Assembly (NCBI GenBank): GCA_900553465.1
Contig: USDT01000034.1
Location: 1 to 30,617 of the forward strand
DNA length: 30,617 bases
From: an uncultured Prevotella sp.
Lineage (GTDB): Bacteria; Bacteroidota; Bacteroidia; Bacteroidales; Bacteroidaceae
Reading direction: 5' to 3'
In this document: in pieces, positions 9,890-22,844 of the stretch
Layout of the letters: each line of letters begins with the position of its first letter
Numbering within the stretch: the first letter of the stretch is position 1
The notes under the pieces: generated by a model
Told to the model about the DNA's origin: nothing
The model's input: the letters and a program-made list of their open reading frames with translations, nothing else
The model's database searches: none
Translations under genes and position numbers: made by a program

Positions 9890-9915
9890 GCCACACCTTA
9901 TTATACGATATACGT

Positions 9916-9946
9916 AAAAGCCCCACCTTTTCCAGGTGAGGCTTTT
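9916..9946. terminator. Bidirectional rho-independent terminator after lptD
   Basis: A-run AAAAGCC, stem of 13 positions with one mismatch, loop TTTCC, then GGCTTTT. The flanking A and T runs allow it to work in both directions, 27 nt after the lptD stop and at the 3' end of the minus-strand small ORF. Confidence 0.9.
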
Positions 9947-10169
9947 ATTGTATACAGGCTTCTGCTAAGGCCGCCCGTTGTTTCTTCGGCATTGTAGGAT
10001 AGGACAGTGCGGAAAGTAGAAAGCATATCTCTGTATTGTGGATAAATACGATATCCGAGTCTTTGGCAGACTCTATACGACTCAGTATAAAGTCTGTGGT
10101 GAATGCCTTTTCGTATAAATAGCTGCTGAATATCGGAATACTTACAGACACGCTGGTGGTATAAACCAT
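9945..10169 (-). CDS. Small hypothetical protein or 3' remnant of a larger gene
   Basis: I do not recognise this ORF. From the ATG at 10169 it encodes 74 residues (MVYTTSVSVSIPIFSS...ALAEACIQ); a TTG at 10202 would extend it to 85, and an in-frame stop lies just upstream of that. Codon choice is ordinary for the window, and the stop sits exactly at the arm of the bidirectional terminator, which favours a real or formerly real gene. There is no signal peptide or clear domain; the phrase DSDIVFIHNTEICFLLSAL looks like the buried part of a globular protein. No promoter is evident upstream. It may be the decayed C-terminal end of a longer gene, because the adjacent sequence is repeat A. Confidence 0.35.
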   Translation of the reverse strand: MVYTTSVSVSIPIFSSYLYEKAFTTDFILSRIESAKDSDIVFIHNTEICFLLSALSYPTMPKKQRAALAEACIQ

Positions 10170-10464
10170 GATGGCACGGGTATTGCGTAATAATAAATTC
10201 AAATTACCACTACTTATAAATCATCGTTGCAAGAGTCGGCGCGCACTTTTTCCGCGCTTTTCCTACGCCTGATATCAGTGTCTTTAAAGAAAACCCGGAC
10301 GGTGAACTTACAGATTTTCTTGACTTTTTTTTTGACAAAATAAATACGGAAAATAGGTGTGAAGGAATGTTAAATCATGCCTTGTAAAGGCTATTTCGGT
10401 ATGTTCCGTCTTTTAATATACCCTATACCATAGTTTGAATAAATTGATGTTGTGCTCTGATAAT

Positions 10465-10553
10465 GCCCGTTTGAGCCTATGGTTTCGCCCGTTTCAGGGT
10501 GTGATATTGTGCATTTCATGCCCCGAAACGGGCAATATCGCATGCCGAAATGG
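10465..10553 (+). ncRNA. Putative structured RNA core of repeat A (hairpin plus pseudoknot)
   Basis: A 21-position stem pairs 10489-10509 with 10533-10553, with only two mismatches (one of them G against G), closing a 23-nt loop at 10510-10532. The 3' side of the loop (AAACGGGC, 10526-10533) is complementary to GCCCGTTT at 10465-10472, so an upstream strand can pair with the hairpin loop. In copy B the same pairings are kept with compensatory changes (see findings). Transcription is not proven. Confidence 0.5.
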
Positions 10554-10631
10554 TGCTTATTACAAGACGGAAAAATGAATGTCAGACATAAGTTGTTGCA
10601 GTCCAGTAACTTATGCAATGTTCTTATAATT

Positions 10632-10682
10632 CGCGTATTTGCGTCCGAAGGAGAGTCGGTCTGCAAATACGCGTTTGTTTTT
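10632..10682 (+). terminator. Terminal hairpin with T-run in repeat A
   Basis: An 11-bp perfect stem pairs CGCGTATTTGC (10632-10642) with GCAAATACGCG (10663-10673). It encloses an inner CCGA/TCGG helix and is followed by TTTGTTTTT. It looks like an intrinsic terminator ending the repeat in its own orientation. Confidence 0.6.
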
Positions 10683-10821
10683 CGGGGTAGATCATGAAAC
10701 TCAGACCTGAAAATCAAAATCTGCTTACAATCTGTAAGTGTCCCGGTGGCATTTCTTTCGGCAGAATAAAACAATGCCGGTTTGGAATTGAATCCGTGGT
10801 TTTTATTGCAACCGATACCGA

Positions 10822-13110
10822 TTAATTTCCACTGGGTTGTTTGTTTGCCTTGTCGCCGCGGTTGTGTTTTGCCACGCTTTCCAGGTCGGCTGTCTCGCCT
10901 ACAAGCCATACAATGTCGTCGGGACGGAATCTGTATGATGCATCCACGGCCGAGAGGTTCTCCTTGCCTTCCTCTATTCCAACCACCATGCAGTTGTATT
11001 CGTCTCTTATTCCGCTTTCGCCGAGCGTCTTGCCTGTGAATTTTCCGTCCTTGTCTATTACAATCTGCTTGAGGTGCATTTCCCTCTGTTCCAGGTCGGG
11101 GTCATCTTCCACCACATTACTGTTCACGGCCTCGCTGAATGTAGTCAGCTGTTCGTCGCTTCCTATCACCTGCAGCCGGTCGCCGGGAAAGAGAGTGTCG
11201 TCGCCGCCCGGTATGTTTATGCGTCTGTGTCCGCGCAGAATACTGCTTACGTGCACTCCATAGCGGTTGCTCAGTCCGAGCTCGCGCAGCGATTTTCCAG
11301 CCCATACCGAGTCGGCCGGTACGTCTATGTCGCTTATGTGCACGTCTCTGTCGAGCAGGTGACCTTCATACAGCGGCTTTCTCATTCCGAGCACCTGCGC
11401 CTCTATCTCACGCGATCTGAGGTTCTGTACGAATATCTTCTCCATTCTTATGCTGCGCTTCTTCAGTCGTCTCGACACCACCATGAGCATCACCAGAGCC
11501 GTGGCTATGCTTATCATCAGCGCGTTGGTGAAACGCGACAGATAGTTGCATATATAGAAAATGAAGGCAATGGCTATGATTGCCCGCACGATAATGGTGA
11601 ATATGAGCGGGAATCGGTTCATCCAGTTCTCGTGCCACAGTGTCATGAACTCTTTGCTGTGGTTCTTCTTCATTATCATGGCGCGTAGGAACGGCGATAT
11701 GATAAACACCGTGAGCAGGCCGCATATGCCGTTTGCCCACCAGTGCATGCCGGGCATGACTTTTCTTATGAACGGAAGGAAGAACATGAACATCAGAACT
11801 ATGCACGCCGTAGACAATATGGAGTAGACCAGAGTGTTGAGCGCCATCTGTGTGATGAGTCTTTTCCAGTTGCTCTGTTGTGCGGGCGCATTGTTCATGG
11901 ATATGTTGTTGAGCGTGTTTATCCAGCTTTTTGGCAGATGGCGTTCCACGTAGCCGTAGCACGGCACCGACAGTTTTATCATGTAAGGTGTGAGGAACGT
12001 AGTTATCACCGATACGGCCACAACAACGGGATAGAGGAAGTGGCCCGTCACTCCGAGCGAAAGTCCCAGCGAGGCAATGATGAACGAGAACTCACCTATC
12101 TGCGCCATGGAGAATCCGCATCGCATGGCTGACCTGAGCGACTGTCCGCCGAGCATGAAGCCTATTGTGCCGAACACAGCCTGTCCTACGAGTATCGTTA
12201 TGACGAGCGCCACTATTGGGAGAGCGTATTCCACGAGTATCTCCGGATCGACAAGCATGCCCACCGACACGAAGAATATCGCGCCGAAGAGGTCTTTCAC
12301 CGGCGATACGAGCTTCTCTATCTTGTCCGCCTCGATGGTCTCAGACATGATGGAACCCATGACAAACGCTCCGAAAGCGCTGCTGAAGCCCACCTTTGTC
12401 GACAGCACCGCCATCAGACAGCACAGTCCGAGTGACACGATGAGCAGCGTTTCGTTGTTGATGAGCTTGCGCATCGACCTCAGGAACAGCGGCACCACGG
12501 CTATGCCCACCACAAACCAGAGAATGAGGAAGAACACAATCTTCACGATGCTGCCTATCATCTGCCCACCGTCGGCGCCGTTGCCCACGGCTATGGCCGA
12601 CAACATCACCATCATGACAATGGCCAGTATGTCCTCCAGTATGAGCACACTCATCACCGGTCCGGTGAATTTCTGCTGCCTGAGCCCCATGTCGTTGAAC
12701 GCCTTATAGATGATGGTGGTGGAGCTCATGGCCAACATTCCGCCCAGGAATATGCAGTCCATGCGTTTCCAGCCGAAGGAGTGGCCCACGATTATGCCCA
12801 GCGTCATCATGCAGAAGATGATGGTGCATGTGGATATGACGGGCGATGCGCCCATCTTCATTATCTTCTTGAACGAGAAATCGAGACCGAGCGAGAAGAG
12901 CAGGAACATCACTCCTATGTCGGCCCACGTCTGAATGCTCGACTGATCAATAACCGACATGGTGTACGGCATGTGCGGACTGACGATGAATCCTGCCACA
13001 ACATAGCCGAGCACAAGCGGCTGTTTCAGTTTCTTGAACAGTATTGTGACCACGCCTGCCACTATCAGTATCAGTGCGAGGTCGGATATGAAATTCGGTG
13101 TTTCTGCCAT
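10822..13110 (-). CDS. CPA2 (Kef-type) cation:proton antiporter with two C-terminal RCK_C domains
   Basis: Inner-membrane monovalent cation/H+ exchanger for K+ or Na+ and pH homeostasis. Starting at the ATG at 13110 (MAETPNFISDLAL), it has 762 residues; the longer open frame to 13257 adds a hydrophilic, low-quality 49-residue extension, which I left out. Residues about 8-390 form the Na_H_Exchanger domain with some 12 membrane segments (GVMFLLFSLGLDF, LEDILAIVMM, GAIFFVSVGML, CGFSMAQIGEFSFI). A further set of four segments (about 420-560) is followed by two TrkA-C/RCK_C-like domains (about 600-675 and 685-755) with the pattern FRPDDIVWLVG. No nucleotide-binding RCK_N domain is present. It lies 201 nt downstream of pepT on the same strand. 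Ion specificity is not readable. Confidence 0.92.
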   Translation of the reverse strand: MAETPNFISDLALILIVAGVVTILFKKLKQPLVLGYVVAGFIVSPHMPYTMSVIDQSSIQTWADIGVMFLLFSLGLDFSFKKIMKMGASPVISTCTIIFCMMTLGIIVGHSFGWKRMDCIFLGGMLAMSSTTIIYKAFNDMGLRQQKFTGPVMSVLILEDILAIVMMVMLSAIAVGNGADGGQMIGSIVKIVFFLILWFVVGIAVVPLFLRSMRKLINNETLLIVSLGLCCLMAVLSTKVGFSSAFGAFVMGSIMSETIEADKIEKLVSPVKDLFGAIFFVSVGMLVDPEILVEYALPIVALVITILVGQAVFGTIGFMLGGQSLRSAMRCGFSMAQIGEFSFIIASLGLSLGVTGHFLYPVVVAVSVITTFLTPYMIKLSVPCYGYVERHLPKSWINTLNNISMNNAPAQQSNWKRLITQMALNTLVYSILSTACIVLMFMFFLPFIRKVMPGMHWWANGICGLLTVFIISPFLRAMIMKKNHSKEFMTLWHENWMNRFPLIFTIIVRAIIAIAFIFYICNYLSRFTNALMISIATALVMLMVVSRRLKKRSIRMEKIFVQNLRSREIEAQVLGMRKPLYEGHLLDRDVHISDIDVPADSVWAGKSLRELGLSNRYGVHVSSILRGHRRINIPGGDDTLFPGDRLQVIGSDEQLTTFSEAVNSNVVEDDPDLEQREMHLKQIVIDKDGKFTGKTLGESGIRDEYNCMVVGIEEGKENLSAVDASYRFRPDDIVWLVGETADLESVAKHNRGDKANKQPSGN

Positions 13111-14645: not shown

Positions 14646-15273
14646 CTAATAATCATCGTAAAAAACGAATAAAATGATAAAAAATAAAGCCCGGTGGCTT
14701 CTCTTTGTCAGCCCGTCGGGCGATGGCGTGTGTGCGGTGTACGTGTGGTGTGGATGTGTTGTGGGGTAGGCAGGCGCTAACTTTTGCTGTGCCAGATGTT
14801 GTGATGTAAACAATTTTTAACGAAAACTCAACCGGATTTTAACACTTTTCCTTCGCTCCTTCCAGCTTCCTGAAGCAGAATCTACCCGCTTTTTTATGCA
14901 TGCAAATGCCTTTATGCCGGTTGCCTTGTGCGTTGTTGTCGGGGCGTTTTCGCTTCGCTGATTTCCATTAAAGCCCGTTTTGCACTGCGATAGACACCGT
15001 TTTATCACCTGATATGGACGGAATCAGGGCATGAAAGAGCCCATTCGGAGGTGCCGAATGGGCTCTTTCGCGCCGCCGTTTTTTCATAACGGTGTGGCGG
15101 TCTGATGTATATCGTTGAATATCAACGCCTTGCACAATGTGCCGAAAATTCCCGTTTTTCGCGTCAAAATATCTCTTATAGAAAACTTTACGAATTTTGA
15201 GCCATTTTCGGACGTTGTTTTTTAACATTTCAGGGACTCCGTTTTCCCCTTGTCCGGCGATCTTCCTATGGCG
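14646..15273. other. Gene-poor gap between the HAD gene and pepT
   Basis: No convincing coding region. The two minus-strand ORFs here (14817-15008, 14968-15228) are basic, low-complexity readings, one running straight through a perfect hairpin. Visible structure: AAGCC/GGCTT hairpin (14687-14700), a 15-bp hairpin (15034-15068) and a two-part hairpin (15071-15099; CGCC/GGCG outside, CCGTT/AACGG inside). Part may be the 3' untranslated region of the HAD transcript, part a repeat or RNA gene. Confidence 0.5.
15034..15068 (-). terminator. Strong 15-bp hairpin, possible terminator of the HAD gene
   Basis: The stem starts AAAGAGCCC and ends GGGCTCTTT, 15 bp perfect, with the 5-nt loop AGGTG. It lies 205 nt beyond the HAD stop and has only a TTT tail on either strand, so its use as a terminator is uncertain. 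Confidence 0.5.
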
Positions 15274-16059
15274 TCAGTCGATTACTCCGAAGTGCTCTAA
15301 TGCCTTGGCCACGCCGTCATTGTCTATATGGTCGGTCACGTAATCGGCTGCTGCCTTCACGTCGTCGAGTGCATTACCCATGGCCACACCCGTGCCCGCA
15401 CGTTTTATTATAGGTATGTCGTTGCCGCCGTCGCCGAATGCCATTGTCTCTTCTATGGCTATGCCGGCAGCTTTGGCCACGGCTTCCAGTCCGCGACCTT
15501 TGTCGGCCTGATTGGACGTTATGTCGCAGAAGGCCGGATACCAGCGTGTGGCCGTGCATGCCTTGAGGTAGGGCATGAGCGTGTCTTCCTGCTGTTGGGT
15601 GAAGAACGGCGTTATCTGCAGCACCGGTTTCTTCAGCAGTTCTTCTATCGGCACCGACATTACGCCACGTTCTACGTCGAGTATATCGTATAGCACATGG
15701 TCTGTCTCTTCGGTGCTGTAGAGCATTGATGTGCCCTCGTTACCCATCACCAGACATCCGGCTTTTTCTTTTTTGACATACTCCAGCAGTGTGTCCACGT
15801 CGCTGCGCTCTATCGGTGTCAGTCTTACGTTTTGGTCACCTATGGTGCAGCATGCGCCGTTGGTTGTGATGTATCCGTCTATCAGGTGGCTTATGGCGCC
15901 GAGATTGTTGATGAGCGGCATGGGTCTGCCTGTGGAAATGAATATCTTTACTCCTTTCTCCTTGGCGCGTGTGAGAGCTTTCACCGTCGACTGTGGTATG
16001 GCGTGCGTGTTGAAACTCACAAGTGTGCCGTCTATATCGAAAAACAGTGCTTTTATCAT
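15274..16059 (-). CDS. Cof-type HAD-IIB sugar-phosphate phosphatase
   Basis: Cytoplasmic haloacid-dehalogenase phosphatase of the Cof/YbjI-YidA class, 261 residues. The HAD motifs are complete: motif I DIDGT with Asp8 (nucleophile) and Asp10, motif II STGRP (42-46), motif III lysine in QADKGRG (Lys187) and motif IV GDGGND (209-214). The type IIB cap lies between about residues 83 and 185. The family acts on small phosphorylated metabolites, usually sugar phosphates or FMN/PLP; the substrate here cannot be read. It has its own promoter box 36 nt upstream and is separated from pepT by 738 nt. Confidence 0.93.
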   Translation of the reverse strand: MIKALFFDIDGTLVSFNTHAIPQSTVKALTRAKEKGVKIFISTGRPMPLINNLGAISHLIDGYITTNGACCTIGDQNVRLTPIERSDVDTLLEYVKKEKAGCLVMGNEGTSMLYSTEETDHVLYDILDVERGVMSVPIEELLKKPVLQITPFFTQQQEDTLMPYLKACTATRWYPAFCDITSNQADKGRGLEAVAKAAGIAIEETMAFGDGGNDIPIIKRAGTGVAMGNALDDVKAAADYVTDHIDNDGVAKALEHFGVID

Positions 16060-22039: not shown

Positions 22040-22106
22040 ACGGTTCGTGAAAATATTTTGTTTGTTTTTGTATGTCGGATTTTTACTCTCTGTCGATTAT
22101 TACATG

Positions 22107-22138
22107 CAAAGATAGTGAAAGGTGAGCGCAATAGCAAA
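22107..22138 (-). promoter_or_regulatory. Consensus promoter of dnaX
   Basis: On the minus strand TTTG (22138-22135), a 20-nt spacer and TATCTTTG (22114-22107) match the Bacteroidetes consensus exactly, giving a leader of about 60 nt. It lies in the first unit of the 88-bp tandem repeat. Confidence 0.85.
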
Positions 22139-22313
22139 TGAAAAAACATGGTTTTTTCTGAATTTGATATTGCCGAACCGCCTCCTGTCTTATCCAAAGA
22201 CAGTGAAAGGTGAGCGCAACAGTAAACGAAAAAACATGTTTTTTTCTAAATTTGATATTGCCGAACCGCCTCCTGTCTTATCCAAAGACAGTGAAAGGTG
22301 AGTGCAAGAGCAG
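22107..22313. repeat. 88-bp tandem repeat, two full units and a partial third
   Basis: The start CAAAGAYAGTGAAAGGTGAG recurs at 22107, 22195 and 22283, an exact 88-bp spacing. The two full units differ at only a few positions; both contain an A/T-rich inverted repeat (GAAAAAAC...GTTTTTTC in unit 1) and TTTGATATTGCCGAACCGCC. The third unit breaks off after about 30 bp. Only unit 1 has the TA needed for a -7 box (TATCTTTG); units 2 and 3 read TGTCTTTG. Confidence 0.95.
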
Positions 22314-22426
22314 ATCATCTTATTCCGAATAAGCGTTGTCGCAAGGCTGCTGACAGGAGAACTGTCAAGGCTCGTCCCACGCCATGATTTTTCGTCTGAG
22401 TTTTCTGTTCTACCCCAAAAAATTAG

Positions 22427-22468
22427 CGAGTATTGGCGTGCCGACTCACCTTCGGACGCAAATACACG
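22427..22468 (-). terminator. Terminal hairpin of repeat B
   Basis: The minus strand has CGTGTATTTGC pairing with GCCAATACTCG (two mismatches of 11) around CCGA/TCGG, followed by CTAATTTTTT (T-run opposite 22417-22422). This is the counterpart of the hairpin at 10632-10682. Confidence 0.5.
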
Positions 22469-22546
22469 AAAAATAAGAATATTGTGTAAGTTGCTGAATA
22501 TCAATAACTTATATATAATAACCATTTTCCTGTACTGCAATAAGTA

Positions 22547-22635
22547 CTGTTTTAGCACGTGATATTGCCCATTTCAGGGCATGAAACGCGCAATATTGCA
22601 CCCTAAAACAGGCGAAACCACAGGCTCAAATGGGC
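22547..22635 (-). ncRNA. Putative structured RNA core of repeat B
   Basis: Arms 22591-22611 and 22547-22567 form a 21-position stem with three mismatches and a 23-nt loop. The loop strand at 22567-22574 is complementary to 22628-22635 (GCCCATTT with AAATGGGC on the minus strand). Loop length, the G-G mismatch at stem position 10 and the loop motif TTTCATGCCC are the same as in copy A. Confidence 0.5.
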
Positions 22636-22844
22636 ATAATCGGAATGGCAGGTGCATCATTCCGCACTGCACTGCTGGGTATATGATAATGTGGTACGGA
22701 CTGATATGGCCTTTGTAATGTCTGATTTAACATTCGTTCACATCTCTTTTGCGATTTTATTTTGTCAAAAAAAAGTCAAGAAAATCCGTAAGTCCGTCGT
22801 CTGAGTTTTCATAAAAAACATTGATATTAGGTGTAAGTAAAAAC

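What the first reader, a model, noticed from the sequence alone, without database searches (positions are those of the whole stretch)
10465..10553. Repeat core folds as a covarying hairpin with pseudoknot topology
In copy A (plus) and copy B (minus, 22547-22635) a 21-position stem is kept: 19 of 21 positions pair in A and 18 of 21 in B. Compensatory changes occur at stem positions 2 and 7 (C-G in A, T-A in B), position 3 is G-T versus G-C, and the G-G mismatch at position 10 is present in both. The 23-nt loop keeps TTTCATGCCC, and its 3' side pairs with an upstream strand: GCCCGTTT/AAACGGGC in A, GCCCATTT/AAATGGGC in B, again a compensated pair. The order strand-hairpin-loop gives a pseudoknot. 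Paired changes in both helices argue for selection on RNA structure rather than on protein.
Basis: seen in the sequence. Interest (0 to 1): 0.82.

Follow-up and report, generated by a model that had tools for sequence, protein, structure and literature searches.

The report
Spaced palindrome-array elements in Prevotella chromosomes
The folded repeat is one piece of a roughly 400-base non-coding DNA element, built from phased 22-base palindromes and a palindromic tail, that recurs between genes along the chromosomes of some Prevotella-group bacteria and rarely lies close to another copy, as if the bacterium needs these marks set apart.

Summary
The pairing is real: 19/21 and 18/21 positions, above shuffles. 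A third copy from Leyella lascolaii, not used to draw the structure, keeps 6 of 28 pairs through changes on both sides. An RNA pseudoknot is not shown: the stem has probability 0.00 in copy A's predicted fold, the 'pseudoknot' strand is a word repeated 22 bp on, and G-U versus A-C tests give no consistent strand signature.

What is there is a dispersed intergenic DNA element: AT-rich left block, tandem self-complementary 22-bp units in fixed phase, and a 38-bp palindrome CGTATTTGC-N20-GCAAATACG. The window holds three (A; T at 14,970-15,155; B). L. lascolaii has 42 in one 745-kb contig, no two closer than 7.6 kb (14 spacings below 7.5 kb expected, 0 seen). A second species has at least 138 places and 2 spacings below 3 kb where 17 are expected. 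Array words are shared within a genome but hardly between species. T is kept at its orthologous site in L. lascolaii; A is not.

Best reading: chromosome-wide protein-binding arrays kept apart by selection. Main rival: an old MITE-like family with target immunity. Closest known architecture: BrickBuilt of Porphyromonas gingivalis. No cognate protein was found.

The parts
10258..10706 (+). element copy A (stretch alignable to copy B), between lptD and a Na/H exchanger gene
10315..10357 (+). left block TTTTCTTGAC...TTTTGACAAAATAAA...GAAAATAGG, largely shared with B and the L. lascolaii copy; counterpart of the AAAATAGAAA block of other species (by eye)
   Evidence: L. lascolaii profile matches 10487-10682, E 8.8e-20
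10465..10472 (+). upstream strand (GCCCGTTT) proposed for the pseudoknot; same word at 10487
10487..10533 (+). competing nested hairpin, arms 10487-10499 and 10521-10533, favoured in the RNA fold of A but without covariation above shuffles
10634..10671 (+). tail palindrome CGTATTTGC-N20-GCAAATACG
   Evidence: model R1 match 10609-10696, E 2.3e-16, (A is in the model)
14970..15155 (+). third element T (array plus degenerate tail), same place and orientation as an element at 201.4 kb of the L. lascolaii contig
   Evidence: profile E 6e-18; alignment; synteny
22394..22841 (-). element copy B, between dnaX and a DUF5077/DUF3472 gene
   Evidence: profile match 22613-22425, E 6.3e-15
22429..22466 (-). 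tail palindrome of copy B (3 mismatches to the 18 arm bases)
   Evidence: model R1 match 22404-22491, E 1.4e-13, (B is in the model)

Best explanation
The hairpin is the repeat array of a dispersed intergenic DNA element. Each copy has an AT-rich left block, several tandem 22-bp units (two helical turns) that are each an inverted repeat, and a 38-bp palindromic tail with a fixed 20-bp centre. I infer that dimeric DNA-binding proteins occupy the units on one face of the helix and a second, more conserved factor occupies the tail, so that each element is a loading or anchoring site. Copies are kept several kilobases apart because they divide the chromosome into stretches (nucleoid, topological or segregation domains). 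Shown: anatomy, copy number, lack of close pairs, intergenic position, motifs conserved above spacer in L. lascolaii, one orthologous site in the window. Inferred: the proteins, cooperative binding and chromosome organisation.
For: A lag of 21-23 or 43-45 bp ranks first on one side of the palindrome in 38 of 40 loci, exactly 22 or 44 in 35. In L. lascolaii 26 of 26 model-found copies have the array beside the tail and keep it in one phase, unit consensus GCGGAAAAG-C-CTTTTCCGC + 3 bp. Their mean pairwise identity is 0.825 in palindrome arms (inflated, copies were found by the tail), 0.459 in the array, 0.301 in the spacer, 0.264 in the left flank. A profile from 18 copies outside contig C5 gives 42 elements on C5 at E<=1e-3 and 0 on the reversed contig (a profile from all 26 gives 1 on the reversed contig). 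Minimum spacing 7.6 kb; 0 of 41 below 7.5 kb against 14.2 expected at random positions or 13.3 at random intergenic gaps, 0 of 20,000 simulations each. G017, one chromosome: 138 places, 2 spacings below 3 kb against 16.8 expected, 0 of 20,000 as few. Mean overlap with ORFs of 300 aa or more 7% against 63% of the contig. The dyad occurs 120 times in L. lascolaii at <=3 mismatches, reversed control 0. Array 8-mers are shared within genomes (mean 0.043-0.093 in six genomes, 3-26 copies each) and near shuffle level between unrelated ones. T sits at the same place and orientation in both species.
Against: No cognate protein was found. Array conserved clearly above spacer only in L. lascolaii; in G030 (0.469 against 0.447), G047 (0.434/0.413) and G118 (0.364/0.320) the gap is small. 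Different units in different species are hard to explain by slow co-evolution of one protein with hundreds of sites. The family is patchy: any match in 8 of 60 relatives, six or more rows in 5; 12 of 200 by strict pattern; lower bounds, since model R1 misses the element inside L001. Copy A has no counterpart at its L. lascolaii site. A lies about 4.5 kb from T, closer than any pair on C5. Spacing is not even in general: G017 has CV 1.17 (random 0.99) and two close pairs (0.8 and 2.0 kb, weak matches); on C5 low CV holds at E<=1e-3 but not at E<=1e-15. C5 spacings fit an exclusion zone plus chance (KS p 0.43; G017 p 0.02 on 135 places), so no ruler is shown.
Confidence: 0.46

Rival explanations
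1. Old family of non-autonomous mobile elements (MITE-like, BrickBuilt-like). The 22-bp array and tail are transposase-binding sites; the empty zone around each copy is transposition target immunity or loss of close pairs. The present copies are mostly fossils.
For: Dispersed copies in both orientations (22 and 20 on C5); A present in the window and absent at the orthologous place in L. lascolaii; patchy distribution; higher copy similarity in G030 (median 77% over 56 hits longer than 200 bp) suggests a younger burst; array words shared within a genome; C5 spacing fits an exclusion zone plus chance; a palindromic motif TGNATATTTATGCA near both ends in L. lascolaii; modular leader-tandem-tail build as in BrickBuilt (PMC4596501).
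Against: Motifs kept while spacers are near random in L. lascolaii; in G030, G047, G191 and G118 end-to-end matches, direct or inverted, are close to shuffles; no Y1 transposase in G001, G047, G113, G163 or G191; orthologous retention of T and of 4 G047/G191 pairs.
Confidence: 0.33
2. Structured non-coding RNA genes: each element is transcribed and folds into a hairpin array with a pseudoknot.
Against: The wider set of 79 copies gives no consistent G-T excess over slid controls, and A-C exceeds G-T in L. lascolaii arms; array dyads mostly follow composition; stem not in the predicted fold of A; all four arrangements of flanking genes occur; no Rfam match.
Confidence: 0.12
3. Recombination or processing sites: the tail palindrome is the substrate of a site-specific recombinase or single-strand nuclease, the array its accessory sites.
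For: Tail arms conserved across species around a fixed 20-bp centre that varies.
Against: Copies scattered in both orientations; no exact tail palindrome in viral contigs; no candidate enzyme found.
Confidence: 0.05

Closest known systems
BrickBuilt MITE of Porphyromonas gingivalis (PMC4596501; abstract, sections 5 and 8 and part 1 of 2 of section 7 read)
   Same: Intergenic, dispersed, leader - tandem short repeats - tail; predicted long stem-loops; no Rfam match; many copies in one genome
   Different: Repeat unit 23 nt; IS5-like 12-nt inverted ends; 19 copies in ATCC 33277; by that paper's BLASTn confined to P. gingivalis, with homologues in P. gulae (BLASTx gave weak tail hits in two Prevotella species). 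Here 22-bp dyad units in fixed phase, a conserved 38-bp tail palindrome, at the ends only a palindromic motif in L. lascolaii, 42 copies in 745 kb and 138 places in another species, close pairs under-represented
REP/BIME/REPIN elements with RAYT transposases (recalled; papers seen in search listing only)
   Same: Intergenic palindromes in many copies; paired inverted arms with a variable centre
   Different: No Y1 transposase in five of the ten carrier genomes tested; units are head-to-tail 22-bp dyads
Iteron arrays and Tn7/Mu end sites of about 22 bp (recalled, no call)
   Same: Tandem or clustered protein sites spaced by two helical turns
   Different: Dispersed over the chromosome; no rep or transposase gene was looked for beside each copy, and Mu-type family PF09299 rang nowhere, controls included, so it is untested

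Membership tests
BrickBuilt MITE | 23-nt tandem repeats | tested here: not met
   top lag exactly 22 or 44 in 35 of 40 loci and information autocorrelation peak at 22
BrickBuilt MITE | different leader and tail flanking the repeats | tested here: met
   left block and palindromic tail in fixed order in information profiles of three genomes; left block not recognisable by eye in every copy, e.g. L226
BrickBuilt MITE | short terminal inverted repeats of IS5 type | tested here: inconclusive
   end matches close to shuffles in G030, G047, G191, G118; in G001 both direct (11.3) and inverted (11.0) exceed shuffles (10.1) through a palindromic motif; the published 12-nt motif was not searched for
BrickBuilt MITE | intergenic location | tested here: met
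   39 of 42 elements overlap ORFs of 300 aa or more by no more than 10%
REPIN/RAYT | genome encodes a Y1 (RAYT) transposase | tested here: not met
   5 of 10 genomes with the strict pattern have none; 8 of 12 genomes G002-G013 have one (G013, without one, was later found to carry the element)
Structured RNA (reader) | compensatory change in the proposed helices | tested here: met
   6 of 28 pairs in three sequences
Structured RNA (reader) | strand-specific G-U tolerance | tested here: not met
   no consistent sign over 79 copies; a first set of 42 tails showed it in inner pairs only
Structured RNA (reader) | transcription | not testable with these tools
   no RNA-seq available
Tn7/Mu-type transposon | Mu-transpos_C transposase in carrier genomes | tested here: inconclusive
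   0 of 20 genomes, but 0 of 14 controls rang
Known Rfam family | covariance-model match | tested here: not met
   only a tRNA in the window at gathering score; best sub-threshold match to copy A scores 24.8 against gathering 55

The most novel reading that the evidence does not exclude
A lineage of Prevotella-group bacteria marks its whole chromosome with hundreds of separately evolving clusters of phased 22-bp dyads plus a conserved palindromic anchor, set several kilobases apart, as a dedicated domain-organising system. The binding protein and its sites would change specificity together from species to species, since copies in a genome share array words that other species lack while the tail stays the same.
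Probability: 0.32. Interest if true: 0.9.

Novelty: new variant of a known kind. Interest (0 to 1): 0.72.

Why it matters
If the elements are functional sites, they give a sequence-defined set of chromosomal domain boundaries or anchor points, testable by deletion and Hi-C. If they are mobile, they show an exclusion zone around a non-coding repeat and how a dispersed family can change its repeat unit in step across a genome. Either way an intergenic feature that is easily taken for RNA genes or spurious ORFs gets a definition (22-bp dyad array + CGTATTTGC-N20-GCAAATACG). In the open-access searches made here I found no description of it.

Tried and rejected
REPIN/RAYT: Y1 transposase does not track the element. 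Plasmid or phage cargo: blastn of copy A against plasmids and phages found nothing; the exact tail palindrome is in 0 viral contigs. Wider Bacteroidales: of 295 order-level genomes at <=2 mismatches 36 match, but only G001 has more than two places and the reversed control rings in 19, so the rest is background level (my note 4 says 20, a miscount). Named relatives: over the 80 loci (1.4 Mb) model R1 rings in 2 at E<=0.1 (L013, L035) and R2 in 5 at E<=1e-3 (L013, L017, L019, L035, L068); R1 misses the decayed-tail element that lies in L001. Direct terminal repeats or target duplications: not above shuffles except the L. lascolaii motif near both ends. A shared neighbouring gene that could encode the binding protein: 5 cross-genome hits, which I judge to be about chance (not simulated). 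A clean empty site at A: the two intergenic regions are too diverged. B's L. lascolaii place could not be checked, synteny breaks near 18.7 kb. Analyses later replaced: neighbour directions used spurious ORFs inside elements, replaced; the listing stopped on a script error and was redone; one search left out 15 of the 150 G017 rows, among them two places close to others, so repeats it with all rows. Only 150 of 1655 G017 candidates and 150 of 807 G001 candidates were scored. On C5, rows weaker than E 1e-3 (for example at 75.0-75.4 kb, E 0.2-0.9) are not counted. In one search, 6 loci with unclear orientation were skipped, and L110, L134, duplicates and the G017 loci were not put in.

Full report
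Both copies exist where stated and the pairing counts are right: 19 of 21 and 18 of 21. Dinucleotide shuffles of the same 89 bases reach the best stem 0 of 300 times for A and 1 of 300 for B. The structure was drawn from A and B only, so I tested it on a third copy from L. lascolaii (L081, 71% identical over 435 bp). Six of 28 pairs show changes on both sides, sliding the partners gives 0 to 2, and 4 of 500 shuffles reach the covariation score. A nested competitor shows no covariation above shuffles (220 of 500). So the pairing is real and kept, on three sequences.

What is not shown. RNAfold puts probability 0.00 on the stem in A and at most 0.38 in B, because arm 10487-10499 pairs instead with 10521-10533. 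Here fold prediction and covariation disagree, and RNAfold does not score pseudoknots, so a pseudoknot is not excluded. The upstream strand 10465-10472 and the competing arm at 10487 are one word repeated 22 bp apart: such alternatives are what a tandem array of self-complementary units gives. A test that separates RNA from double-stranded DNA is the balance of G-T and A-C mispairs, which should tip towards G-T on a transcribed strand. The first 42 tails gave 33 against 40 in outer pairs and 45 against 22 in inner pairs. The larger set of 79 copies gave 86 against 51 in inner pairs, but slid controls were similar (75:47, 79:58); arms were 4 against 20 in L. lascolaii and 14 against 7 in G030. 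Array dyads are more numerous than in shuffles (L. lascolaii 195 against 116) but their mispairs follow base composition in six of seven groups; G191 has an excess, 35 against 17. Compensatory changes between orthologous copies are too few to tell (1 of 57 and 3 of 49 pairs in the two directions, about 0.6 expected). The RNA reading is not supported, though not excluded.

The window and its relatives. The genes (lptD, Na/H exchanger, dnaX and others) and the best relative (L. lascolaii, exchanger 88% identical) place the window in the Prevotella group. No genome is held for it. Copy A in full matches one strong and three weak places in L. lascolaii. Reading those showed a recurring end, CGTATTTGC-N20-GCAAATACG. 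A strict search finds it in 12 of 200 genus genomes, up to 13 places per genome, with the reversed pattern at 0 in all 200. Searches gave no Rfam, plasmid, phage or viral-contig match.

Anatomy. In 38 of 40 loci around that end, a lag of 21-23 or 43-45 bp ranks first on one side; L110 and L111 do not show it. Forty-two tails align without gaps; pairs 15-42 with 47-74 form standard pairs in 73% of cells against 33-44% when slid; 18 of 28 pairs show changes on both sides (48 of 500 shuffles reach that number, 0 of 500 the covariation score; the arms were mostly selected by pattern). A model of the tail finds 26 places in L. lascolaii at E<=0.05. All 26 have the array beside the tail; the left block is plain in most but not all, for example not in L226 (by eye). 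In register they give the unit GCGGAAAAG-C-CTTTTCCGC plus three bases, in one phase relative to the tail (information autocorrelation 0.59 at lag 22). Other species have other units with the same period. Measured as shared 8-mers, arrays within a genome share 0.043 to 0.093 (six genomes), arrays of unrelated genomes mostly 0.001 to 0.008, about the level of shuffles. Related pairs lie between: G047/G191 0.052, G030 with these two 0.026-0.028, G118 with these two 0.014-0.016, window/L. lascolaii 0.018. Mean pairwise identity in L. lascolaii is 0.825 in the arms, 0.459 in the array, 0.301 in the spacer and 0.264 in the left flank. In G030, G047 and G118 the array exceeds the spacer only slightly, although the 20 bases after the tail stay conserved (0.51-0.66).

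Number and spacing. The dyad occurs 120 times in L. lascolaii at up to 3 mismatches, reversed control 0. I took one whole contig (745 kb) and searched it with a profile made only from the 18 copies outside it: 42 elements at E<=1e-3, 0 on the reversed contig. The smallest spacing is 7.6 kb; the 38 spacings below 30 kb average 13.9 kb (SD 4.0). None of 41 is below 7.5 kb, where random positions give 14.2 and random intergenic gaps 13.3; 0 of 20,000 simulations match in either case. The lack of close pairs holds at every threshold tried; the low coefficient of variation does not hold at E<=1e-15 and stricter. Three of the six gaps over 20 kb have GC below 0.46 (contig 0.498), so they may be islands. 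A second species, G017, with one 3.17-Mb chromosome, was searched with a model from 14 of its own copies: 150 rows, the scoring cap, in 138 places. Two spacings are below 3 kb against 16.8 expected, five below 5 kb against 26.8; the two closest pairs involve weak matches. Overall spacing there is not even (CV 1.17, random 0.99), which incomplete detection may partly explain. I therefore claim exclusion at short range, not a ruler; on C5 an exclusion zone plus chance fits (KS p 0.43; G017 p 0.02 on the 135 places). Elements lie between genes, often where transcription direction changes (27 of 42 against 136 of 402 gene pairs, genes called from ORFs by my script).

Stability. T, a third element in the window at 14,970-15,155, was not in the finding. 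It matches the element at 201.4 kb of the L. lascolaii contig, between the same genes and in the same orientation. Copy A has no counterpart in L. lascolaii. G047 and G191 share at least four positions. So at least some copies are old and inherited, with some gain or loss.

Interpretation. Fixed phasing, intergenic position, conserved motifs in decayed surroundings (clear in L. lascolaii) and mutual exclusion point to sites that matter where they are, most simply clusters of protein-binding dyads that organise the chromosome. The same facts, with patchy distribution (any match in 8 of 60 relatives) and the A difference, could come from an old MITE-like family with target immunity. Against that stand the weak evidence for inverted ends (only a palindromic motif in L. 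lascolaii) and the lack of a candidate transposase (one search is uninformative because no control rang). Array words shared within a genome but not between species are explained more easily by amplification within each lineage than by slow co-evolution, and are the most puzzling feature for the functional reading. After re-checking I moved the odds slightly: best reading 0.48 to 0.46, MITE 0.32 to 0.33, RNA 0.10 to 0.12, novel case 0.33 to 0.32.

Known relatives. BrickBuilt of P. gingivalis (PMC4596501; abstract, sections 5 and 8 and part 1 of 2 of section 7 read) has the same modular plan but 23-nt units, IS5-like ends and 19 copies. It was reported from P. gingivalis and P. gulae, with weak BLASTx tail hits in two Prevotella species. 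Membership fails on unit length and is inconclusive on the ends. In PMC5771137 and PMC10969869 I saw passages only. Searches of the open-access library turned up no account of this family; most subscription journals and all bioRxiv preprints are not covered.

Noticed in passing
window 22104-22315: Tandem 88-bp repeat (2.3 copies, 92% matches) between dnaX and copy B; 88 is four times 22, possibly coincidence
   Followed up: no
window 15028-15074: 21-nt-arm hairpin with a 5-nt loop inside element T; the arms look like element unit words, and it could also act as a terminator for the HAD-family gene ending at 15274
   Followed up: partly
window 9892-10860 and L001 12335-12641: The lptD/exchanger intergenic region is about 970 bp in the window and about 310 bp in L. 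lascolaii; a similar terminator-like hairpin sits beside lptD in one and beside the exchanger gene in the other
   Followed up: partly
L167 (G259:C6:1941-1978): Single order-level place whose palindrome arms read CGTGTTTGC/GCAAACACG, changed in step on both sides; a possible distant relative
   Followed up: no
G001:C5 81-137 kb, 439-497 kb, 643-683 kb: The three longest stretches without elements; two of the three are clearly AT-richer than the contig and may be acquired islands
   Followed up: partly
L142 (G118): Array expanded to many near-identical 22-bp units (autocorrelation 0.88 at lag 22), suggesting recent slippage growth
   Followed up: no
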